A DNA stretch of 43,925 bases from an uncultured Granulosicoccaceae bacterium (GTDB lineage Bacteria > Pseudomonadota > Gammaproteobacteria > Granulosicoccales > Granulosicoccaceae), in assembly GCA_937927895.1 (NCBI GenBank), contig CALGKA010000063.1:1-43925 (forward strand). Reading direction: 5' to 3'. Of this stretch, positions 9,746 to 37,550 are shown in pieces; position 1 is the stretch's first letter, and each line of letters starts with the position of its first letter. A program made the position numbers and the translations under genes. The notes beneath the pieces were generated by a model that was given only the letters and a program-made list of their open reading frames with translations, was not told the origin of the DNA and ran no database searches.

Positions 9746-10735
9746 ATGAAAAGCATTAAATACATGAATGCAAAGATACTTAATAACGCTATAGCTTGCA
9801 TTATATTCGGAGGAATGTTCTCTGCATGTGAGAGCTCTAACTATAACGATACTCCAGCTGCCAGTTTAAGCCTACCTGATCGACAGATTCTTGCGTTAAA
9901 TGATAAAAGATTACTTGTTGAGTTCAATATTAATAACGGGCTACCACAGAAGTACTTTCTAGAGCCTGACCAAACCACTATTGATGTTTCAGTGGGTGGG
10001 GTTCGTGATAATCAGAACAATACTATTGATATTCTATGGTCGGCAATATACAACGATATGGGCGTAGAAATTTCCACTCAAAACCAGGAATTTTTCGCGC
10101 GTGGGAATATTGTTATTGACGCGCCGCACGTAACAGACTTTTTTGACTACGACAAAGATGGCATATCTAATTACGCTGAGCTATTAGATGGTACTTGTGT
10201 TTGGTACACGGGTAATCAGTGTTATTTGGATGGCGTAATAGATAAGCCAACATCACCCGCACTTTCACAAGGCCTAATACCTGACTACTCATTTGATTAT
10301 AACAATGCGGACGACCTTATAGTAAATGGCGACTTCTCCAGAGGGACAGAGGGATGGGGAGCAGACTATGCATGGCTGCAGTCCGTCGGTACTCATTTAT
10401 GCTCTACCCTGGATGCAGGAACATTCCCAGTTCAATATCCGGTTTTAGCTTCCGGGAGTATTGGTTTAGAACCGGGGGAACATATGATTGAATTTGACGT
10501 AAAAAGCACTAGGGACAATGCTGCACTTAATGTACAGCTTTACTCCTTCGCTCGTCAGCAAGTAGTATTATATGAATTCGTGCAACCATTATCGCTCGAT
10601 TGGGGTAAGCGTCGAATAAAGTACACTTACAGTGGAGAGCAAGACAATTTCAGTCTCCAATTTAGCGCCGTTATAAACAACTCTCAAACAACGACGTACT
10701 GTTTTGATAATGTTTCTGTTTTTAAAGCACAGTGA
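9746..10735 (+). CDS. predicted lipoprotein with Ca-binding loop and C-terminal carbohydrate-binding-like domain
   Basis: I start at the ATG at 9746 (329 residues), because a lipoprotein leader follows: basic start, hydrophobic stretch, then lipobox FSAC. An ATG at 9641 would add 35 residues with no signal character, and an ATG at 9764 is also possible. No start has a strong ribosome site. The middle contains DYDKDGISNYAELLDG, a calcium-binding EF-hand/thrombospondin-3-like loop. The last 140 residues begin LIVNGDFSRGTEGW and end YCFDNVSVFKA, the pattern of CBM4/9-like jelly-roll domains. I infer a surface lipoprotein that binds glycan. It is followed by an SGNH hydrolase gene 50 bases later, which supports a role with polysaccharide. 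Exact function is unknown. Confidence 0.72.
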   Translation: MKSIKYMNAKILNNAIACIIFGGMFSACESSNYNDTPAASLSLPDRQILALNDKRLLVEFNINNGLPQKYFLEPDQTTIDVSVGGVRDNQNNTIDILWSAIYNDMGVEISTQNQEFFARGNIVIDAPHVTDFFDYDKDGISNYAELLDGTCVWYTGNQCYLDGVIDKPTSPALSQGLIPDYSFDYNNADDLIVNGDFSRGTEGWGADYAWLQSVGTHLCSTLDAGTFPVQYPVLASGSIGLEPGEHMIEFDVKSTRDNAALNVQLYSFARQQVVLYEFVQPLSLDWGKRRIKYTYSGEQDNFSLQFSAVINNSQTTTYCFDNVSVFKAQ

Positions 10736-10785: not shown

Positions 10786-12012
10786 ATGAAGAAGACTGTA
10801 TTTTTTATCGCAACGTTACTCCTTGGAGTTTTACTGGCAGAACTAACCGTAAAGGCAGCTGCGTATCTTTCACCGAGAATCGCTTACGAACTGCGACCAC
10901 CCTGGGGGAATCGAGCACTAGATCCGGATTCTGTATTAGGCTATCGGCTATCGCCTTTTTTCCCTGGCTCTGATAAGCGGGGCTATCGTAATTTAGTTGC
11001 GCTCAATAAGGCCGATATTCTCGCCATTGGAGACTCTATGACGTACGGCTACACCGTAATCGAAAGTGACTCTTGGCCCGGGATCCTCAGAAAAAATAGC
11101 AATTTTCAGATCTACAATGCAGGTGTTGGTGGTTACGGCCCGTGTGAGTATTTACACGTGGCAAAGGAGTTAATTGACCTGGCCCCTAAAACTATTGTGG
11201 TTAGCGTGTACTTAGGAAATGACATGAGTGACGCCTATACATCTGTGTACCTGGAAAAGCGTTGCGAAAGTTTGCGTAGTGTCGACGCTGAGATGTTAGA
11301 CGAGCTAGAACGTGCTCACTCTGAACTTTCCCTTAAAGACCAGGCTACAAATCTTGGCCTAACCTCAGTGCCAGTACCCTTCAGGGTTGGGTTACCATCG
11401 TCACATAGATTTATTGGGACTAAACTTAGGGATAAGTCTGCGATCTATGCATTGTTCCGTAATGTATACCATCGCTTAACTAACTTTCAGTGGGACAGGT
11501 TTGGCGAAAAAGCTGATGAAAGCTACGAACAGACGTCCAATATCAATGGCAATATCGTCTACGACGAAATAGAAGAACTCCGAACTGTATTCAAGAATCC
11601 AGCAGTTGACGTGTTAGCCGTAGATCAAAATGATCTGAGGATACTTGAGGGCAAACGTATCACAGAGCGTGCTTTGCTTGGTATTCATTCGCTAATGAGC
11701 GAAGCACACAATACAAAAATGATTATCGTTATATTCCCTACAAAGGCAGTGGCATATAACAATCTCTTAGAGGACGATTACATAGCTAACCACAAGTCAT
11801 TGATCCCGAAAATAAAAAATGAACTCAAGTTAAAGAGCGATCTCATATCATTTTTTGAGAGTGAAAACTTAGAATACCTAGACACCACTCCACTTCTGGA
11901 AGCCTCATTAAAAATGGGCGAAACACCATTCCACAACTCAGCTAACGAACATCCAAATGAACTCGGTTATAAACTGGTCGCAGAAGCCATTGCAGATGCT
12001 TTGGCAGAATGA
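10786..12012 (+). CDS. SGNH/GDSL-family hydrolase or acyltransferase-like protein, membrane-anchored
   Basis: 408 residues. Residues 5-27 form a hydrophobic N-terminal anchor or uncleaved signal, so the domain is probably periplasmic. SGNH blocks are visible: block I with the nucleophile at S84 (IGDSMTYG), block II glycine in NAGVGGYGP (about 110), block III asparagine in YLGNDMSD (about 138) and block V His at 389 (HPNELGY). The Asp that usually sits two or three residues before that His is not evident; N387 and A386 occupy the place, so the triad may be incomplete. Such proteins add or remove acyl groups, often on polysaccharides. It lies between a glycan-binding-like lipoprotein and a carbamoyltransferase module, and relatives of both are common in surface polysaccharide regions. 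Confidence 0.8.
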   Translation: MKKTVFFIATLLLGVLLAELTVKAAAYLSPRIAYELRPPWGNRALDPDSVLGYRLSPFFPGSDKRGYRNLVALNKADILAIGDSMTYGYTVIESDSWPGILRKNSNFQIYNAGVGGYGPCEYLHVAKELIDLAPKTIVVSVYLGNDMSDAYTSVYLEKRCESLRSVDAEMLDELERAHSELSLKDQATNLGLTSVPVPFRVGLPSSHRFIGTKLRDKSAIYALFRNVYHRLTNFQWDRFGEKADESYEQTSNINGNIVYDEIEELRTVFKNPAVDVLAVDQNDLRILEGKRITERALLGIHSLMSEAHNTKMIIVIFPTKAVAYNNLLEDDYIANHKSLIPKIKNELKLKSDLISFFESENLEYLDTTPLLEASLKMGETPFHNSANEHPNELGYKLVAEAIADALAE

Positions 12013-12146
12013 ATCCTCCCTCGATTACAAGATATAATCACATGTTTCTAATATCAGTTCGATTTAGTAAATTTTCTGCAAGACTGCAAACGTAAACCGC
12101 TTCACATTAAGTACAAGGCTGCGCTGCCAACCTCAACACGGATATG

Positions 12147-12182
12147 ACCAGCGTTTTGTTGTGAGCTTGCTGGTTATTTTTC
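12147..12182 (+). terminator. possible intrinsic terminator after the SGNH gene
   Basis: A 6-bp stem (ACCAGC at 12147-12152 and GCTGGT at 12169-12174) with a 16-base loop is followed by TATTTTTCT. The short stem and large loop make it weak. It would separate the SGNH gene from the carbamoyltransferase module. Confidence 0.3.
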
Positions 12183-12212
12183 TTGCATAACCATACTTAA
12201 CAAAGATGTTAT

Positions 12213-12434
12213 ATGAACATACTCGGTATCTCCGCATACTATCACGACAGCGCCGCAGCTTTAGTGTGCGATGGAATGATAGTAGCTGCTGCGCAGGAAG
12301 AACGGTTTTCCAGAAAAAAGCATGACCCGAGCTTCCCCACTAGAGCTATCGGATATTGTCTGTCAGCAAATAATTTGTCGATAAACGATGTAGACTTTGT
12401 CGTGTTCTACGACAAAGTCTATGTTGAAATTTGA
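12213..12434 (+). pseudogene. carbamoyltransferase, N-terminal fragment (frameshifted)
   Basis: This frame encodes the N-terminal 73 residues of a NodU/CmcH-family carbamoyltransferase. It opens with MNILGISAYYHDSAAAL, the ASKHA-type start of the family. It continues with VAAAQEERFSRKKHDPSFP and reaches VVFYDK, where family members normally continue into L-K-F-x-R-L-L-E-T-Y. Here the frame instead reads V-Y-V-E-I and stops. The missing continuation is present immediately in the +1 frame from the ATG at 12421. The change therefore equals one extra base (or two lost) near 12420, at the end of a perfect hairpin (12391-12421). No slippery heptamer is visible, so I call it a disrupted gene. A sequencing or assembly error remains possible, because the rest of the gene is intact. 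Confidence 0.85.
12391..12421. repeat. perfect 12-bp inverted repeat at the carbamoyltransferase frameshift
   Basis: TAGACTTTGTCG (12391-12402) and CGACAAAGTCTA (12410-12421) are exact reverse complements with a 7-base loop. The hairpin lies inside the coding sequence, and its right arm ends exactly where the reading frame changes. Perfect palindromes inside genes are unusual. This one is best explained as a product of template switching between the arms of an imperfect palindrome, which would have introduced the frameshift. Confidence 0.8.
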
Positions 12435-14052
12435 CCGCTTGCTCGAAACCTACCTTAGTCGTGCTCCAAAAGGATTCAAAAGTTTTTCGATGGCCATGCC
12501 GGTATGGTTAAAGGAGAAGCTATACTTGAAGTCTGTATTACGCAACGAACTAAAATCACTGGGCGTAAAAGGTAAGAGCAAAGGGCCGCAATTACTATTT
12601 ACTGAGCACCATCAATCACACGCCGCATCAGCTTATTACCCCAGCCCCTACAACGATGCCGCTGTTCTTTGCATTGACGGAGTGGGTGAGTGGGCAACGA
12701 CCTCAGTATGGCACGGACAAGGGGAAAAACTTACGCCGGTCTGGCAGATAAACTTTCCGCATTCTCTCGGCATGTTGTACTCCGCCTTTACTTACTACAC
12801 CGGCTTTAAAGTTAACTCGGGGGAGTACAAACTGATGGGTCTCGCACCGTACGGAGAGCCCAAATATGTGGACACTATTTTAACTCATTTAATTGACGTT
12901 AAAGACGACGGCACGTTCAAATTAAACATGGACTATTTTGATTATGTAACGGGCCTTACTATGACGAACAAACAGTTCGACAGGCTTTTTGATGGACCAC
13001 CACGCCAACCCGAGTCGCCGATCACCCAACGCGAAATGGATTTAGCGAGATCAGTACAGGAAGTGACTGAGCGAGTGGTACTACGTTTGGGGCACACGGT
13101 ACACAAGGAATTGGGTAGCAAAAACCTGTGCCTGGCGGGCGGAGTTGCTTTGAATTGCGTAGCGAACGGACGACTTAGTCGTGAAGGACCATTTAGGAAC
13201 ATATGGATCCAACCTGCTGCCGGTGATGCCGGGGGTGCCATCGGCGCTGCTCTTGCAACCTGGTATCAATATCTCGAAAACGATAGACCTGCCCCTAAGA
13301 GTGATGCGATGCGAGGTAGTTATCTCGGCCCTACTTACTCAGCTGAAGATATCGCTGCCAGCCTGGAGGAGCTTGGTGCAGTCTATGAAGTCCTTAACGA
13401 TGATGATTTACCTGGTCACGTGGCCAGTGTGCTGGCAGACGAGAATGTCGTCGGTTGGTTTCAGGGTCGGATGGAATTCGGTCCACGAGCGCTTGGCGGG
13501 CGTTCAATTCTCGGTGATCCGAGAAGTACTAACATGCAATCTATAATGAACCTCAAAATCAAATATCGTGAGTCGTTTCGACCCTTCGCACCTTCAGTGC
13601 TGGCGGAGCGGGTATCAGATTATTTTGATATTCAGTCCACCAGTCCTTACATGCTGCAGGTTAGCGAAATAAAAGATCAGCATAGAATTAGCATGACAGA
13701 AGAACAACAGAATATGTTCGGGGTTGAGAAATTAAATGTGCCTCGGTCAACTATACCGGCGATCACACACGTAGATTATTCAGCGCGAATACAAACAGTG
13801 CACAAAGAAACGAATCCTCGTTATCATGCATTGTTGTCTTCATTTGACGATAAAACCGGTTGCCCGGTGCTGGTTAACACTTCTTTTAATGTTCGGGGTG
13901 AGCCAATAGTAGCTACTCCCGAAGATGCGTACCGGTGTTTCATGCGCACAGAAATGGACTATCTGGTGATCGAAAATTTTGTTCTGCACAAGCCCAGTCA
14001 ACCAAAGTGGACAAAAAACGAAGACTGGATGAACGAGTTCGAGCTCGACTAA
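12421..14052 (+). pseudogene. carbamoyltransferase, main fragment (NodU/CmcH/SxtI family)
   Basis: From ATG 12421 the frame gives 543 residues starting LKFDRLLETYL, which directly continues the upstream fragment. The ASKHA carbamoyl-adenylate-forming region has EHHQSHAASAYYPSP (about 60-75 in this fragment) with the catalytic/metal His residues. Then come GVGEWATT, the GEYKLMGLAPYGEP motif and LCLAGGVALNCVANG. The C-terminal YrdC-like carbamoyl-transfer domain includes GWFQGRMEFGPRALGGRSILGDPR and ends with LVNTSFNVRGEPI. All motifs are intact, so decay is recent or the frameshift is an artefact. If translated alone from 12421 it would lack the first ASKHA strands and probably be inactive. 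The family makes O- or N-carbamoyl products from carbamoyl phosphate and ATP. The acceptor here is unknown; context suggests a sugar or small secreted product. SxtJ- and DUF5989-like genes follow. Confidence 0.88.
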
Positions 14053-14073
14053 TAGACTGAGATGTAAATACTA

Positions 14074-14487
14074 ATGAGTACTTCGAAAATAATACCCGAA
14101 CTGGATGTAACAGGATTACGCAAGTTTGCCTTTACGACAGCTTCGTTTGTGGTCGTGGTGTTTGCGTTTGTTATCCCTTGGCTATTTGGATTTGGTTACC
14201 CCAAGTGGCCGTTAATAATAGGTGGAGTGTTGGCCGCCTGGGGCGCTTTAGCACCATCAACGCTCCGACCTATATATCGGGGTTGGATGCGTTTCGGTCT
14301 GTTTATGAGCAAAATTACTACACCTATTATTCTCGGGCTTTTATTTTTTCTTGTGTTTACACCTGTCGCTCTATTTATGCGACTAATAGGCAGAGATCCA
14401 CTACACACAAAAATTGACAAGAACACCAGTACACATAGAAATGTCTCTACTGTCTCCCCCAAAGAAAACATGGAAAAACCATTCTAA
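14074..14487 (+). CDS. SxtJ-family small membrane protein
   Basis: 137 residues with two strongly hydrophobic regions: about 20-60, probably two helices (VVVVFAFVIPWLFGFGYPKW then IIGGVLAAWGALAP), and about 80-105 (ITTPIILGLLFFLVFTPVAL). It ends in a polar tail. The motif FMRLIGRDPL after the last helix is typical of the SxtJ family as I know it. Function is unknown. The gene starts 21 bases after the carbamoyltransferase and its stop overlaps the next start (TAATG), so the three genes form one translation-coupled unit. I infer that it works with the carbamoyltransferase in the membrane. Confidence 0.85.
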   Translation: MSTSKIIPELDVTGLRKFAFTTASFVVVVFAFVIPWLFGFGYPKWPLIIGGVLAAWGALAPSTLRPIYRGWMRFGLFMSKITTPIILGLLFFLVFTPVALFMRLIGRDPLHTKIDKNTSTHRNVSTVSPKENMEKPF

Positions 14488-14639
14488 TGATTGAGTTAAT
14501 GAGTGATTTATGGGCCTATATGCGAGCTCATAAAAAAATCTGGCTATTACCCATACTGATATTACTCGTCTTATTGGGTGCACTCGTCGTCTTTGCACCA
14601 GGTTCAGCGCTCGCACCGTTTATATATACATTATTCTAA
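14487..14639 (+). CDS. DUF5989/SxtK-like 50-residue membrane protein
   Basis: A 50-residue protein starting at the ATG that overlaps the SxtJ-like stop (TAATG at 14485-14489). It begins MIELMSDLWAYMRAHKKIW, continues with one membrane helix (LLPILILLVLLGALVVF) and ends APGSALAPFIYTLF. This layout (an acidic amphipathic start, K-K-x-W, one helix and a terminal F-I-Y-T-L-F) is the pattern I associate with DUF5989. The small size makes it easy to miss. Its role is unknown; the strict position after an SxtJ-like gene suggests a subunit or regulator of the carbamoylation module. Confidence 0.85.
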   Translation: MIELMSDLWAYMRAHKKIWLLPILILLVLLGALVVFAPGSALAPFIYTLF

Positions 14640-23488: not shown

Positions 23489-23522
23489 GCGGTCAAAGCG
23501 CCAGGGACGGCGCTTTGACCGC
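23489..23522. repeat. perfect 14-bp hairpin in non-coding DNA
   Basis: GCGGTCAAAGCGCC and GGCGCTTTGACCGC are exact reverse complements separated by AGGGAC. No T-run follows on the plus strand. On the minus strand an A/T-mixed stretch lies 30 bases on. The surrounding 23212-23670 bases carry no credible gene. The element could be a terminator relic, a structured RNA or a second repeat family. Confidence 0.7.
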
Positions 23523-26595: not shown

Positions 26596-27780
26596 CTACT
26601 CTATGAAAACGAGTTGATCATTACTTTCAAAAGATAAACGCGGTAATTCAAAGTGGCTATCTGACGACAACACCTCGGCGCTATCTAGAAAATTACCGAG
26701 TGCCGCTGATGTTCGCACTTGAAGACCACCTGCAATAGTCGTTTCGATTGGCTCACCTACGCTAATTAACACTACTTCAACAGGCTCGCCATTGACTCGT
26801 AACCGCCGCTCTGGATCATCAACCCCATCACATTCAGATAATCCATATGCCGGACTACAGCTAGCATCAACAACGTAATAAATAAGCGATGGCCAACCGG
26901 ATCGATAAAACCATGTTTGGCGCAGCACTCTGTTATCGGGCAAATCTGCGAAGTCAGTATCTGACAATGACTGCTCGCTACAGTTACCAACCTCTGATGC
27001 AAGCAGACCTTTAAGTAAACCTTGCTCACATTGACCACTAGCATTAAGAGCGGCTGCATACGGATAAAATCCATTAAGAGCTTTATATTCTATTAACCAT
27101 TGCTTAGCGAAGCCCAGAGTTCGCCGTTCCATAAGTGGCACCAGATCAGAGCGCCTAATCGGCACTAACAGATCGTTTGATTCATTCAAAGTGAACACGG
27201 AGTCGCCATCGGCGTTCTCGCCTTCCAGATACTCAGAAACACTGTGACTAATCCCTTCTACACCCGATCTATCTTGCGAATCAGTGGCAACATCCGGTGC
27301 AATAAGTACAGCGATTACATCTTGCAGTGAATCTACACTTAACAGTCCACCACCACTGATTGAGTTAAGACTATTGTACGACGGGTTGTAACGATGATCA
27401 GCCGCAATAGCCAACCAAATATCTTGATCCAAAAAACGCTCGATATAATCAATTTCGATTCTATTACCGTCACGTGTCCAAACAGACGGCAAGTAGCCAA
27501 TAGCATTAGGACCACAACGCAAAGCCGGGCGGCTAAAACGCTCCAATGCAGGGCAAGGCAATCTTCCCGTTCCACCACGTGTGTTATGCCCATAGTTATC
27601 GGCATAGTTAACAGCATAAGCCAGTAGCGCCTGCTTAGCTGCAAGAAGAGATTGCAATGTTGCATCTTGCTTGTTAGCGTTTATCTGCCGATCACTAATC
27701 AAATAAAATGCACTACTACTGAGTAACAGCATCATCAATAGTAATAGTGCAATTCCTCGTTGACGCGTTAAAACTTTCAC
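26596..27780 (-). CDS. large PilX/GspK-like minor pilin without Glu5
   Basis: 394 residues. The N-terminus KVLTRQRG then IALLLLMMLLLSSSAFYLI looks like a class III leader, but it lacks the Glu at position 5, as in GspK and PilX, which sit at the pilus tip. The long periplasmic part carries GRLPCPALERF (about 73-83) and GYLPSVWTRDGN, matching the LPCP head domain of the next pilin. At least eight further Cys occur, for example GQCEQG and CSPAYGLSECDGVDDPERR. It overlaps the upstream gene by four bases. I infer a tip or initiating subunit. Whether it is cleaved is not certain. Confidence 0.78.
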   Translation of the reverse strand: MKVLTRQRGIALLLLMMLLLSSSAFYLISDRQINANKQDATLQSLLAAKQALLAYAVNYADNYGHNTRGGTGRLPCPALERFSRPALRCGPNAIGYLPSVWTRDGNRIEIDYIERFLDQDIWLAIAADHRYNPSYNSLNSISGGGLLSVDSLQDVIAVLIAPDVATDSQDRSGVEGISHSVSEYLEGENADGDSVFTLNESNDLLVPIRRSDLVPLMERRTLGFAKQWLIEYKALNGFYPYAAALNASGQCEQGLLKGLLASEVGNCSEQSLSDTDFADLPDNRVLRQTWFYRSGWPSLIYYVVDASCSPAYGLSECDGVDDPERRLRVNGEPVEVVLISVGEPIETTIAGGLQVRTSAALGNFLDSAEVLSSDSHFELPRLSFESNDQLVFIE

Positions 27781-28376
27781 TTTGCAACACTTGAATCTGG
27801 TTTGCTGCTTTGCAGCGTTTCACGAACCTCATTAGATTTAAAAGGCATAAGATCACCAGGGTTCAATACTACCGTTCCAGTATTACCTGACACCTGTAAC
27901 GCACCAGAGAAACTGGCTTGTCCATTGGCACGTACGCTTTCAAAGCGCACACTACCCGTTCTTTCGTAGGTGGATAGACGCTGTGCATTAACCCACAGAC
28001 CAAGCACCGCACCATTTCGCAAAACAACTCCATCATAGCGTGGTAGGGCGCGCTCAGCCTTTAACAGGTTTGTTCCATCAACGGGCGCATTTGCCTCGCT
28101 CTCTTCTTCCGTTACGGCTTCATTGTCCAGCGCAAGCTCCTCTGTATCCAGAGGTTCTGCGGGGAGCATGCCATCCGTTTCAGTTTGACTATTTCTCTTT
28201 TCTGCTGCCCGCTGTTCCTCTACAGACATAAACAAACTCATTGAAGAACCTGGAACCACAGCAGGCGATTCACTCTGAACAGTAGAGGGAATAGATAATT
28301 CAGAAGCCAACACAAAGGCAAAAGGAACACCTGCTACTCCGAAGAATACAATTACTCTACCCTTGCGCAATTGCAT
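27777..28376 (-). CDS. PilP/GspC-like inner-membrane-anchored periplasmic protein
   Basis: 199 residues from the ATG at 28374-28376, which has AGGAG six bases upstream; the ATG two codons earlier sits directly on that site. One N-terminal membrane segment (VIVFFGVAGVPFAFVLA) is followed by an acidic Glu/Ala-rich linker (about 65-110). Then comes a small beta-type domain: RYDGVVLRNGAVLGLWVNAQ, a strand pair VRFESVRANG, and VSGNTGTVVLNPGD. The G-x-V-L-R-x-G-x-x-x-x-W-V-N pattern is what I have seen in PilP-like or MSHA-type clusters. In T4P the PilP partner links the PilNO dimer to the secretin. No secretin gene is present here. The assignment is by position and layout more than by sequence. 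Confidence 0.5.
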   Translation of the reverse strand: MQLRKGRVIVFFGVAGVPFAFVLASELSIPSTVQSESPAVVPGSSMSLFMSVEEQRAAEKRNSQTETDGMLPAEPLDTEELALDNEAVTEEESEANAPVDGTNLLKAERALPRYDGVVLRNGAVLGLWVNAQRLSTYERTGSVRFESVRANGQASFSGALQVSGNTGTVVLNPGDLMPFKSNEVRETLQSSKPDSSVAK

Positions 28377-28965
28377 GGCCATCTCCTATCATGCCAATTG
28401 AATACCACCTGATAGTGCATACCACCTGAAGGTTGATTTCTTCAGCTGTGGTGAGTTCACTATTCTTTTTATTGTCTACCCGATGCATAACAAGAGAAGT
28501 AATCTCAAACGGTGTGCTAATACTTGTAGCTAAATATTCAAACAGCTTTAACAACTGCCCCTCATGGACCAAACCCAACGCAAGCTCAATGACTTCATAA
28601 CCAACGTTAATTGGATAGCCTGACCGGCTTAAATTAATAGGTGTCAACGGATAGACATCAAACTGCAACTCTGACAGATTGAGATTATCTTTAGCATCAC
28701 TTAGCGCTTCGACCCATGATCTTCTTTGCGCAGACCCGGTGCCAACGGATTTCATAATCCGCTGATAATCTGCGCTATTTTCTGCCATATAAGATTGATC
28801 TTCGATACGATCAAACGCCTCGTCCCGCGATTGGTAGTATTGGCTACGCAAGCTTTCTATCTTTACCTGGCCGCGGTGTACATTACTTATAAATACTGCA
28901 ATTAAGCATGCTGAAATTAGAGCCAACAACAAGGCAAGCATTGTTGGCTTATCAATAGCTGTCAT
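28357..28965 (-). CDS. PilO/GspM-like inner-membrane protein
   Basis: 202 residues with a short cytoplasmic start and one membrane helix (TMLALLLALISACLIAVFIS), then a coiled segment (about 30-70) and a ferredoxin-like periplasmic domain. This is the PilO layout and size. The ATGA overlap at 28962-28965 with the PilM/N-like gene and a 20-base overlap with the PilP-like gene fit the order M-N-O-P of type IV pilus operons. The sequence itself has few invariant residues, so the call rests on order and architecture. Confidence 0.6.
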   Translation of the reverse strand: MTAIDKPTMLALLLALISACLIAVFISNVHRGQVKIESLRSQYYQSRDEAFDRIEDQSYMAENSADYQRIMKSVGTGSAQRRSWVEALSDAKDNLNLSELQFDVYPLTPINLSRSGYPINVGYEVIELALGLVHEGQLLKLFEYLATSISTPFEITSLVMHRVDNKKNSELTTAEEINLQVVCTIRWYSIGMIGDGHAIAQG

Positions 28966-30485
28966 GGCTTATCCCTTACCGGACTAATTTCCACAACAAA
29001 GCTACCTCTCGACTCAGCAATATCTGTCGCCGTCGTTTTAGCGTTTTGACTCATCCCGAAAGGCGCCTCAATAACCTCTACTGCATTGCTTGCGCTTGAT
29101 TTGCGCAAATTACTGACAAATGCCTCAAAAGCATCAAGTGCGCTACCTGTACCTCCGCCAACCACACCAGATACTGTCGCCTGATAAACCAGTTCTATGG
29201 GTAGCACTTCAATTAAATCAGTAGCACCCAGAATTTTCTGTAACGATTCTTCATCAAGCAAATCTTGCCGCTCCCAGGAGATTGCCGCAATAGACACAGT
29301 AGGGTGATTGCCCACTACAGAAGACAGTTGTGATAAAAATTCCACAGGGGTTTCCTGGGTGCGTATTTCAGCCAATTTACTTGTCACCATTGCCTGGCGC
29401 ACCGCTTCAACGGGTGGCGCGTGATCGTTATGGTTTAAGTTGGCACTCGCAAGCGTGATTGACCGCCCGTATCGTTCAGTAAGACCGGTAGATTGATCTG
29501 CCGCTTTGGTTGCCAACGCAGCGGAAGATAACGCTCCACCGAACAGACTCAGAGATATCGCAAAACAGACATGTCTAACCTTGCGTGCATTGTAGAATTT
29601 CCGATGCTCTAACTGCTCGTAACCGCAACCACCACGATCTACAACAGACGCCAGTAACTGCACAGCGCTTTCGCCTGAATATGGTTTTACACTAATCCGA
29701 CCGCCCTCATTAGGAAACACATGCCTGAATTCAAATTTTGCAGCAGCACCAAGCGCACTTTTAAGCACGCTCGAGAATGAGTCATCGCTATCACTCTTTA
29801 CAAGACTTACCACTGGAGATGCCCACCCGGGTATTGCCTTGCGGTCTATGTATACTAAAGTCTCACCAATGCTTGTTAACAAGGCATCACTGAGCCCTTC
29901 ATCAGTTGATTCACTAATTTCCACACGGCGATTCATCACTACAAAACCGTTAACGCATGCGAGCAATCGGTATAATTTTTTATCAAGGTGCAACACCATT
30001 AACTGCGCACCTGTAAGACCTAACGACTGACAGACCTTAGGCACCAACGTAACGGGTGAGTGGATAGCTTTTACTATGCTCTCTGACCCGTGCAATTTTT
30101 CTAAAAGCCTTTCACACAACACACTATGACTAATACCTGCGATTAGAACGACATCTGATTCTTCACTTTTTTTGGCAACTTGCTTAGCGGAGGCCATAGA
30201 AAGCAATGATGTCGCAAAATATTTATCACGCATTCTTGTCATGTAGTGCTTTTTATCTTGCCGACCTATTGATGGCAACGGCTCCAAATGGCACTCTTCT
30301 TCGGCTAGATCTATTATTAGGTCAAACACTGCCCGATTATTTGCCAACAAATATACCGATAGTTCATCGGGGATTTCGTTATTGACAATCGGCCAACTGA
30401 ATTTTTCATTAGTACTACTAAACACAATTAGACGGTGGGGCTGTAAAAACAATACATGCCCATCATTTTTAATCTTTAACATCAC
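28962..30485 (-). CDS. PilM-PilN fusion / GspL-like assembly protein
   Basis: 507 residues. Residues 1-300 are cytoplasmic and resemble a degenerate actin-like (PilM/GspL) domain, though no clear phosphate-binding loops are visible. A single membrane helix lies near 312-332 (VCFAISLSLFGGALSSAALA). The periplasmic remainder (335-507) has a coiled part and the PilN-like block SQLSSVVGNHPTVSIAAISWE. Two T4P proteins, PilM and PilN, are usually separate; here they are one chain, as in GspL of type II secretion. The start and end overlap neighbours by four bases each. The family link is inferred from order and topology. I am fairly sure about architecture, less about ancestry. Confidence 0.6.
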   Translation of the reverse strand: MMLKIKNDGHVLFLQPHRLIVFSSTNEKFSWPIVNNEIPDELSVYLLANNRAVFDLIIDLAEEECHLEPLPSIGRQDKKHYMTRMRDKYFATSLLSMASAKQVAKKSEESDVVLIAGISHSVLCERLLEKLHGSESIVKAIHSPVTLVPKVCQSLGLTGAQLMVLHLDKKLYRLLACVNGFVVMNRRVEISESTDEGLSDALLTSIGETLVYIDRKAIPGWASPVVSLVKSDSDDSFSSVLKSALGAAAKFEFRHVFPNEGGRISVKPYSGESAVQLLASVVDRGGCGYEQLEHRKFYNARKVRHVCFAISLSLFGGALSSAALATKAADQSTGLTERYGRSITLASANLNHNDHAPPVEAVRQAMVTSKLAEIRTQETPVEFLSQLSSVVGNHPTVSIAAISWERQDLLDEESLQKILGATDLIEVLPIELVYQATVSGVVGGGTGSALDAFEAFVSNLRKSSASNAVEVIEAPFGMSQNAKTTATDIAESRGSFVVEISPVRDKP

Positions 30486-35899: not shown

Positions 35900-36500
35900 G
35901 CTGTTTTCTCTCTTTGATTTTCTTGTATCTAACTTAGTCTATCCCTCTAAGATGAAAGATGCATTAACGTTCAGATGTGTACAACCCTTTTACTCAGTAA
36001 TTTTGTGCCATAGACTGATGGGCGGCGCCAACAGATACCAGCGACGACTGCACAGCACCGATTGAACCGTAAGTATTAGGCGGCAAGAGACGCTTACGCA
36101 ATTGCACCCGCACCGGGGGTCACTTAACTGATTTAAATAGAGCCACAATGGCACTTCGAAAGTGTGCTAGCAATTCTAACCGCACTCAATTTGCGGCACT
36201 CGAACCACGGCGTGCCTTTAGTCTAGAGGTCTGAACTCTGCTATTTGAATCGGTTGGAATAGATAACCTACCCCTGCACCGGTTCGCGGAAGGTCTTTCG
36301 CTAACAGATATTTAAGCGTTATTTCTCTTTTATGACATTAAGTTTTTAGCCTGTTATTTTCCAGCCCCATTTTTTTAAGATGACTATTTTTTGTATAAAA
36401 ATCAATTAGATTACTTATTGACAGCACATCCCGCCAGTGGTTCTATAAGGTAATTGCGTATCGGAGAGATATGACAATTACCAACCTTGGAGAGAAACAA
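35900..36500. other. divergent regulatory region between the SDR gene and frcB
   Basis: About 600 bases with no credible gene. The half near frcB is AT-rich and has a candidate sigma-70 site (36418-36449). A small hairpin CACTT-CGA-AAGTG occurs at about 36154-36166. I looked for a symmetrical LacI-type operator, as would suit a sugar operon, and did not find a convincing one. No regulator gene lies next to the operon. Confidence 0.4.
36418..36449 (+). promoter_or_regulatory. candidate sigma-70 promoter for frcB
   Basis: A perfect TTGACA at 36418-36423 is followed by TATAAG at 36444-36449. The 20-base spacing is longer than the ideal 17, so an activator or a different -10 (TTCTAT at 17 bases) may be used. 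It lies about 50 bases before the frcB start. Confidence 0.4.
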
Positions 36501-37511
36501 ATGAAAAAAGTACTTGCACTAAGCGCTTTAACATTAGCAGCAATCAACGGACAGGCCTTCGCAGACACCTCTGCATGTTTAATCACTAAAACAGACACCA
36601 ACCCGTTCTTCGTAAAAATGAAAGAAGGGGCTACCGCTAAAGCGGGCGAGCTTGGCGTTTCGCTAAAAAGCTTTGCCGGTAAAGTAGACGGCGACCACGA
36701 AAGCCAGGTGGCCGCGATAGAAACCTGCATTGCAGATGGCGCGAAAGGTATTTTAATTACCGCCTCTGACACCAAAGCCATTGTATCGTCGGTGCAGCAA
36801 GCACGCGATGCAGGCCTGCTTGTAATCGCCCTTGATACTCCACTTGAGCCAATAGATTCAGCAGACGCTACATTCGCCACAGACAACTTCCTGGCCGGTG
36901 AGCTTATAGGCAAGTGGGCCGCATCTGCCTTGGGTGCAGAAGCTGCAAACGCCAAAATTGGCATGCTTGATCTTGCCGTAAGCCAGCCGTCAGTTGGTGT
37001 ATTACGTGATCAAGGCTTCCTACAAGGCTTTGGTATAGACCTAGGCGATCCAAACAAGTGGGGCGATGAAGAAGACCCACGCATTATTGGCAACGACGTT
37101 ACCGCAGGTAATGAAGAAGGTGGTCGCAAAGCAATGGAAAACCTTCTTGCTAAAGATCCAATGATCAACGTGGTATACACCATTAACGAACCAGCTGCTG
37201 CAGGTGCCTATGAAGCCCTTAAATCAATCGGTCGTGAAAACGATGTATTGATTGTGTCAGTAGACGGTGGCTGCCCCGGCGTTAAGAATGTTGCAGAGGG
37301 TATTATTGGTGCAACCTCACAGCAGTACCCACTGCTAATGGCATCACTTGGTATTGAAGCAATCGCTGCCTGGGCAAAGGATGGCAGCAAGCCTGAAAAC
37401 ACACCTGGTAAAGAGTTCTTCGATACAGGTGTTGCACTGGTAACCGATAAACCTGTCGAAGGTGTTGAATCAATTGACACAGAAGTCGGCACTGACCGCT
37501 GCTGGGGTTAA
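36501..37511 (+). CDS. frcB: fructose-type ABC transporter substrate-binding protein
   Basis: 336 residues from the ATG at 36501, which has GGAGAG about seven bases upstream. The frame is open to an ATG at 36471, but the signal peptide begins at [20 protein letters not shown] and cleavage is near AFA-DTS. The mature protein starts [20 protein letters not shown], which I recognise as the FrcB start. Periplasmic-binding type 1 landmarks follow: [53 protein letters not shown] and SVDGGCPGV. In rhizobia FrcB binds fructose, with ribose and mannose as weaker ligands. It is the first gene of frcBCAK and is separated from frcC by a strong terminator. Confidence 0.93.
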
Positions 37512-37520
37512 ATGTATCGA

Positions 37521-37550
37521 AACACGGGTGCCATTGGCACCCGTGTTTTT
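37521..37550 (+). terminator. terminator between frcB and frcC
   Basis: A perfect 12-bp stem (AACACGGGTGCC / GGCACCCGTGTT) with a 3-base loop runs into a T-run. It lies ten bases after the frcB stop. Partial termination here would give many binding-protein transcripts and fewer for the permease and ATPase, which is common in such operons. Confidence 0.9.

What the first reader, a model, noticed from the sequence alone, without database searches (positions are those of the whole stretch)
12391..12434. Carbamoyltransferase frameshift coincides with a perfect 12-bp hairpin: template-switch mutation?
The reading frame of an otherwise intact NodU-type carbamoyltransferase shifts by one base at 12420-12421. 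That is the last base of a perfect palindrome (12391-12402 and 12410-12421, 7-base loop). Family members continue K-x-x-L-K-F here, and the other frame supplies M-L-K-F immediately. Quasipalindrome correction, in which the polymerase copies one arm to rewrite the other, would both perfect the palindrome and create the indel. The alternatives are a real phase-variation or frameshift signal, or an assembly error. The intactness of all later motifs says the event is recent.
Basis: partly seen in the sequence, partly recalled or inferred. Interest (0 to 1): 0.7.

Follow-up and report, generated by a model that had tools for sequence, protein, structure and literature searches.

The report
Gene broken by hairpin copying error
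One enzyme gene in an uncultured bacterium appears to have been broken recently when the copying machinery briefly used a nearby mirror-image stretch as its template, a known kind of mutation seen here in a natural gene.

Summary
A NodU/TobZ-type carbamoyltransferase is split into a 73-aa ORF (12213-12434) and a 551-aa ORF (12397-14052) in another frame. The shift lies within 12414-12421, in the end of a perfect hairpin slightly longer than reported: 13-bp stem (12391-12403/12409-12421), 5-base loop. All 77 of the 79 other fetched places where both pieces were matched keep one frame. In the 75 with the motif, the stem at this axis never exceeds 7 pairs; the same-genus relative is uninterrupted with 5. 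The left arm still encodes conserved residues; the right arm's outer end does not. From possible pre-event codons, 0 of 288 single insertions and 5 of 8,640 insertion-plus-substitution pairs make the stem; one fold-back copying event makes it at once. The window matches all 156 near-invariant columns, so the break is recent or an artefact. No other split gene was recognised among the 26 other ORFs scanned. Best reading: quasipalindrome-associated template switching (0.72), a known mechanism. Raw reads could not be seen, so an artefact remains possible (0.15). A family-wide hotspot at this motif was not supported.

The parts
12213..12434 (+). 5' piece of the carbamoyltransferase gene (73 aa, stops at TGA 12432-12434)
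   Evidence: Pfam Carbam_trans_N positions 2-68, E 3.1e-18; 78% identical to residues 1-68 of the same-genus homolog
12397..14052 (+). 3' piece of the carbamoyltransferase gene (551 aa as an ORF from TTG; homology from 12415)
   Evidence: Pfam Carbam_trans_N positions 73-346 and Carbam_trans_C 1-170; 84% identical to the same-genus homolog
12391..12403 (+). left arm of the perfect hairpin, the inferred template; still encodes conserved residues
   Evidence: homolog comparison
12404..12408 (+). loop of the hairpin
12409..12421 (+). right arm of the hairpin, the inferred rewritten copy; its outer end encodes nothing homologous
12414..12421 (+). interval that contains the change of reading frame
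14074..14487 (+). intact downstream gene of the Pfam family named SxtJ; a related sequence follows the same-genus homolog
   Evidence: DNA alignment; 66 residues in frame at 82%
14487..14639 (+). intact 50-aa ORF next downstream (DUF5989-like; that name is recalled, no search gave it)
   Evidence: translation; its first part aligns with the same-genus relative

Best explanation
A single quasipalindrome-associated template switch broke the gene. The conserved codons for V-V-F-Y-D-K form a short imperfect inverted repeat. During replication the new strand, having passed the loop and the start of the right arm, folded back, paired with its own left arm, copied the outer part of that arm, then returned to the proper template. 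The right arm thus became a perfect reverse complement of the left, and because the copied stretch was one base longer than what it replaced, the frame shifted and translation now ends at 12434. Shown: the perfect hairpin, the split gene, continuous frames and shorter stems in the relatives, and that the right arm is the one that left the family pattern. Inferred: that it was one event, that it happened in the cell, the order of copying steps and the strand. The gene is probably a fresh pseudogene; two uninterrupted paralogs (62% and 55% identical) in the same genome may cover its loss.
For: 13-bp perfect stem whose outer end holds the shift. 77 of 77 other places with both pieces matched have them in one frame. 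Stem at the same axis in 75 homologs: 7 pairs in 1, 5 in 4, 4 in 8, 2 or fewer in 62. Same-genus homolog uninterrupted over 613 aa with 5 pairs. From the eight possible Lys(AAR)-Pro(CCN) codon pairs, at least 2 separate changes (2 of 8) or 3 (6 of 8) are needed; 0 of 288 single insertions and 5 of 8,640 insertion-plus-substitution pairs reach 13 bp. 0 of 156 near-invariant columns deviate, and window and same-genus homolog show no consistent rate difference against five outgroups, so extra later mutations crowding into this one spot are unlikely. Two paralogs uninterrupted. Mechanism documented in E. coli (PMC7202029, passages).
Against: The genome collections hold one genome per species, so no same-species strain could be compared; the pre-event sequence is inferred from relatives, the nearest at about 71-75% DNA identity in the two pieces. 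Up to 8 of the 13 pairs can come from conserved codons, and the outermost pair may have been there before (T of a Val codon against A of the ATG), so the truly new part is only about 3-5 bases. If the ancestor had the favourable codons, two point changes would do. An artefact of the same shape cannot be excluded without reads.
Confidence: 0.72

Rival explanations
1. Sequencing, amplification or assembly artefact: polymerase fold-back at the near-palindrome in vitro, or a consensus error at a hairpin, made the extra base, and the gene is intact in the living cell.
For: No other sign of decay: 0 of 156 near-invariant columns deviate. The window lies in a draft assembly of 168 contigs. Hairpins are plausible error sites (general knowledge). 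Reads were not available.
Against: Of 26 other ORFs of this window scanned, 21 have a Pfam match above cut-off and none shows one domain shared between neighbouring frames; the 5 without a match say nothing and the remaining ORFs were not scanned. A consensus error of this size would need most reads to agree.
Confidence: 0.15
2. Two or more independent point changes: a one-base slip and a nearby substitution that happen to complete the palindrome.
For: From 2 of 8 possible ancestral codon pairs only two changes are needed; short runs of A can slip.
Against: 5 of 8,640 insertion-plus-substitution outcomes give the stem, 0 of 288 single insertions. The rest of the gene shows no surplus of changes, so a second random hit at this spot is improbable.
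Confidence: 0.1
3. The split is functional: programmed frameshifting or phase variation at the hairpin, or restart at the ATG at 12421, still makes the enzyme or a two-part enzyme.
For: The predicted RNA hairpin is strong (-29.2 kcal/mol for 12370-12445, z -6.84); both pieces remain conserved; an ATG in the 3' frame lies within the end of the 5' ORF.
Against: The stem lies at and before the shift, not downstream as in known frameshift stimulators (recalled); no other compared place has the split (77 of 77); no Rfam match in 12000-12800; there is no repeat-unit tract at the site for ordinary slippage-type phase variation.
Confidence: 0.03

Closest known systems
Quasipalindrome-associated template-switch mutation (Ripley 1982 model; E. 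coli thyA hotspot and lacZ QP reporters, as told in passages of PMC7202029)
   Same: An imperfect inverted repeat becomes perfect, with an indel that changes the reading frame; one arm is the template for the other.
   Different: Seen as a natural gene-breaking event in an uncultured bacterium and inferred from relatives; not selected or measured in the laboratory.
Arm homogenization by template switching in yeast coding genes (PMC8604942, passages)
   Same: Perfect inverted repeats with arms of 7-16 bp there coincide with clustered changes in coding DNA.
   Different: The yeast set is multinucleotide substitutions placed on strain branches; here a frame-breaking change in one bacterial gene, with no strain phylogeny.
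Bacterial mutational hotspot set by silent sites (P. fluorescens ntrB, PMC8526746, passages)
   Same: Silent codon choice around a site, thought by its authors to act through local hairpins, decides how readily it mutates; here conserved codons supply the starting stem.
   Different: There a repeatable base substitution measured in evolution experiments; here a single inferred event, and recurrence across the family was not shown.

Membership tests
Quasipalindrome-associated template-switch mutation | Imperfect inverted repeat before the event | tested here: inconclusive
[quoted passage not shown]
   13 of 13 pairs, 5-base loop
Quasipalindrome-associated template-switch mutation | The changed bases lie in one arm and equal the reverse complement of the other | tested here: met
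   The length change and the loss of homology lie in 12414-12421, inside the right arm, which is the exact reverse complement of the left
Quasipalindrome-associated template-switch mutation | One mutational event in replication rather than several | not testable with these tools
   Only indirect: counts and lack of other decay
NodU/TobZ-type carbamoyltransferase (PF02543 + PF16861) | N- and C-terminal Pfam domains | tested here: met
   Both found, the N-terminal one divided between the two pieces; solved relatives TobZ, GdmN and a decarbamoylnovobiocin carbamoyltransferase
NodU/TobZ-type carbamoyltransferase (PF02543 + PF16861) | One uninterrupted reading frame | tested here: not met
   Frame changes at 12414-12421
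Programmed ribosomal frameshift site | The split is kept in homologs | tested here: not met
   77 of 77 other places with both pieces matched have one continuous frame

The most novel reading that the evidence does not exclude
The codons of the conserved V-V-F-Y-D-K motif form a built-in near-palindrome that makes this carbamoyltransferase family prone to repeated self-templated inactivation. My data do not exclude it: 13 of 75 homologs have 4 or more pairs at this axis against 5.8 expected from their own codon usage, and 5 have 5 or more against 1.7. Against it: when I dropped one group of eight Chloroflexi-titled loci, the related measure (both key codons ending in C) fell to 6 observed against 3.4 expected in 26, reached in 113 of 2,000 permutations, and no second broken copy was seen among the places compared.
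Probability: 0.06. Interest if true: 0.45.

Novelty: new member of a known kind. Interest (0 to 1): 0.25.

Why it matters
If confirmed by reads, it is a clear natural example of self-templated mutation breaking a bacterial gene. It shows that apparent simple frameshifts in draft genomes can carry the mark of template switching, which could be surveyed across many genomes. It adds an instance, not a principle.

Tried and rejected
Programmed frameshift or RNA element: no Rfam match at gathering score in 12000-12800; no split in the homologs compared. Terminator: one terminator-like match on the minus strand at the hairpin, with a mean of 0.8 in shuffles, not pursued. Plasmid relatives: 56 records, all at 60-80% identity, Sinorhizobium and Ensifer the commonest, not informative at base level. 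dN/dS against the same-genus homolog: synonymous sites saturated, no usable value. Family-wide hotspot: an excess of paired codons that weakens without one related group. Same-species strains: not to be had, since the collections hold one genome per species; the genus (14 genomes) and family (48 genomes) searches gave G008 as the nearest. Structure prediction was not run, as it would not bear on the mutation.

Full report
What is there. The window belongs to a draft genome of 4.55 Mb in 168 contigs. Its nearest relative with this gene is in the same genus (G008). The genome-contig scan returned CALLBO010000066.1, titled uncultured Granulosicoccaceae bacterium, whose sequence contains the G008 locus exactly (L006 within L063). 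At 12213 an ORF begins that encodes the first 68 residues of a NodU/TobZ-type carbamoyltransferase, runs on for five unrelated residues and stops at 12434. From 12415 another frame carries the rest to 14052. Pfam Carbam_trans_N is divided between the pieces, positions 2-68 and 73-346, with Carbam_trans_C whole in the second. Solved relatives of both pieces include TobZ, GdmN and a decarbamoylnovobiocin carbamoyltransferase.

The hairpin. 12391-12403 and 12409-12421 are perfectly complementary over 13 bases with 5 between. The window holds three perfect stems of 12 bp or more with loops of 3-10, against a mean of 0.05 in 20 first-order Markov random sequences. One of the others, 37520-37548, lies between listed ORFs; the other, 23489-23522, overlaps a 151-aa ORF on the minus strand for which I have no evidence. 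In 78 related loci, 3 such stems lie inside long ORFs (615,258 bases) and 8 outside. As RNA, 12370-12445 folds at -29.2 kcal/mol, z -6.84.

Comparison with relatives. 84 loci were in hand. I set aside two that are the window itself (L001, L005) and three duplicates (L002, L003, L063); one search confirmed these and found no further duplicates. That leaves 79 places. In 77 both pieces were matched, and in all 77 they are in one frame. The two others: L053 starts beyond the junction; in L084 only the last 13 residues of the 5' piece are recognisable, in frame with the rest, and the sequence before them, near the contig end, is unrelated. The genome-contig scan used peptides from downstream of the junction, so it did not select for an unbroken junction. 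A motif search found 75 of 79 (misses: L004, L053, L074, L082); it required a proline after the lysine or arginine, so it cannot show that proline is invariant. At the same axis the longest stem in these 75 is 7 pairs, in one locus; four have 5, eight have 4, nine have 2, fourteen have 1 and thirty-nine have none. The same-genus homolog has 5 and is uninterrupted over 613 aa.

Which arm changed. The left arm encodes V-D-F-V-V, in line with the homologs. The outer part of the right arm encodes nothing homologous. Homologs with the motif have six bases between the lysine (or arginine) codon and the L-K-F-like codons and the window has seven. So the right arm is taken as the derived one and the left arm as the source.

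One event or several. Starting from all eight Lys(AAR)-Pro(CCN) codon pairs, the window's stretch is two changes away in two cases and three in six. No single insertion (0 of 288) and 5 of 8,640 insertion-plus-substitution combinations give a stem of 13. These numbers take the left arm as given. The outermost pair could already have existed, and up to 8 pairs can come from conserved codons, so the strength of the case rests on about 3-5 bases. Against later accumulation: in 18 near-invariant columns of the 5' piece and 138 of the 3' piece (at least 97% identical among 74 and 66 homologs above 50% identity; nine loci were left out beforehand and those at or below 50% dropped) the window deviates in none. 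Counts of lineage-specific changes, window against same-genus homolog, are similar with five outgroups: in the 3' piece 16/21, 20/20, 19/18, 18/22 and 21/15, in the 5' piece 2/4, 4/3, 5/3, 3/5 and 4/3. The break is therefore recent or not real.

Artefact check. Besides the two carbamoyltransferase pieces I scanned 26 other ORFs of the window in Pfam (six, ten each); some listed ORFs were not scanned. 21 have a match above the family's cut-off and none shows one domain divided between neighbouring frames; two of these matches are only short N-terminal motifs. Five have no match (9758-10732, 26599-27780, 27780-28382, 28360-28965, 28965-30485) and say nothing. This argues against a generally error-rich assembly but cannot exclude an error at this hairpin. 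Reads were not available.

Setting. The gene is followed by a member of the Pfam family SxtJ and a 50-aa ORF. The DNA of this downstream stretch aligns with that after the same-genus homolog, while the stretch before the gene does not. ATG-started ORFs of 60 aa or more from the rest of the relative's 11.6-kb locus found no match in the window at E 1e-5; ORFs with other starts were cut or missed there. Of 14 genomes of the genus, 2 have a match at E 1e-50 or better, the window's own included. The own genome has two further uninterrupted paralogs at 62% and 55% identity and a fourth, more distant family member (L004), so loss of this copy may be tolerated.

Hotspot question. 13 of 75 homologs have 4 or more pairs, against 5.8 expected from each gene's own codon usage, and 5 have 5 or more against 1.7. 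In the 33 with V/I-V-F-Y, 12 have both key codons ending in C against 5.7 expected, reached in 23 of 2,000 permutations; after I dropped eight Chloroflexi-titled loci (seven of them among the 33) it is 6 against 3.4, reached in 113 of 2,000. Relatedness is not corrected otherwise. I count this as unsupported.

Known mechanism. Passages of PMC7202029 describe quasipalindrome mutations in E. coli as template switches in which the nascent strand serves as template and the repeat becomes more perfect, citing Ripley 1982 and the thyA hotspot. Passages of PMC8604942 report template-switch changes in 39 yeast protein-coding genes and mention earlier work on short inverted repeats in non-coding regions of proteobacteria. 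Passages of PMC8794818 propose template switching as a maker and keeper of hairpins in RNA genes. Passages of PMC8526746 show silent changes building or breaking a bacterial hotspot, which its authors ascribe tentatively to hairpins. The literature searches were made; I make no claim about whether this particular case is in print.

Verdict. It is a new instance of a known mutation type, of modest interest.

Noticed in passing
window 23489-23522: Perfect 14-bp stem with a 6-base loop, overlapping a 151-aa minus-strand ORF for which I have no evidence; function not examined.
   Followed up: no
window 37520-37548: Perfect 13-bp stem with a 3-base loop, just after the periplasmic-binding-protein gene 36471-37511; perhaps a terminator.
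   Followed up: no
window 12213-14639 and L063 4800-7228: The carbamoyltransferase, SxtJ-family and small-ORF stretch is shared with the same-genus relative, but the rest of that locus found no match in the window (ATG-started ORFs only), possibly a moved or rearranged cassette.
   Followed up: partly
L066, L070, L071, L072, L076, L080: Six loci matched at 39-43% identity, all titled Chloroflexi, Chloroflexota or Anaerolineae, have 4 palindromic pairs at the same motif through codon choice and drive much of the family-wide excess.
   Followed up: partly
L084 1-175: The sequence before the last 13 recognisable residues of the 5' piece is unrelated to the family although the frame is open, near a contig end: a truncated gene or a misjoined contig.
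   Followed up: no
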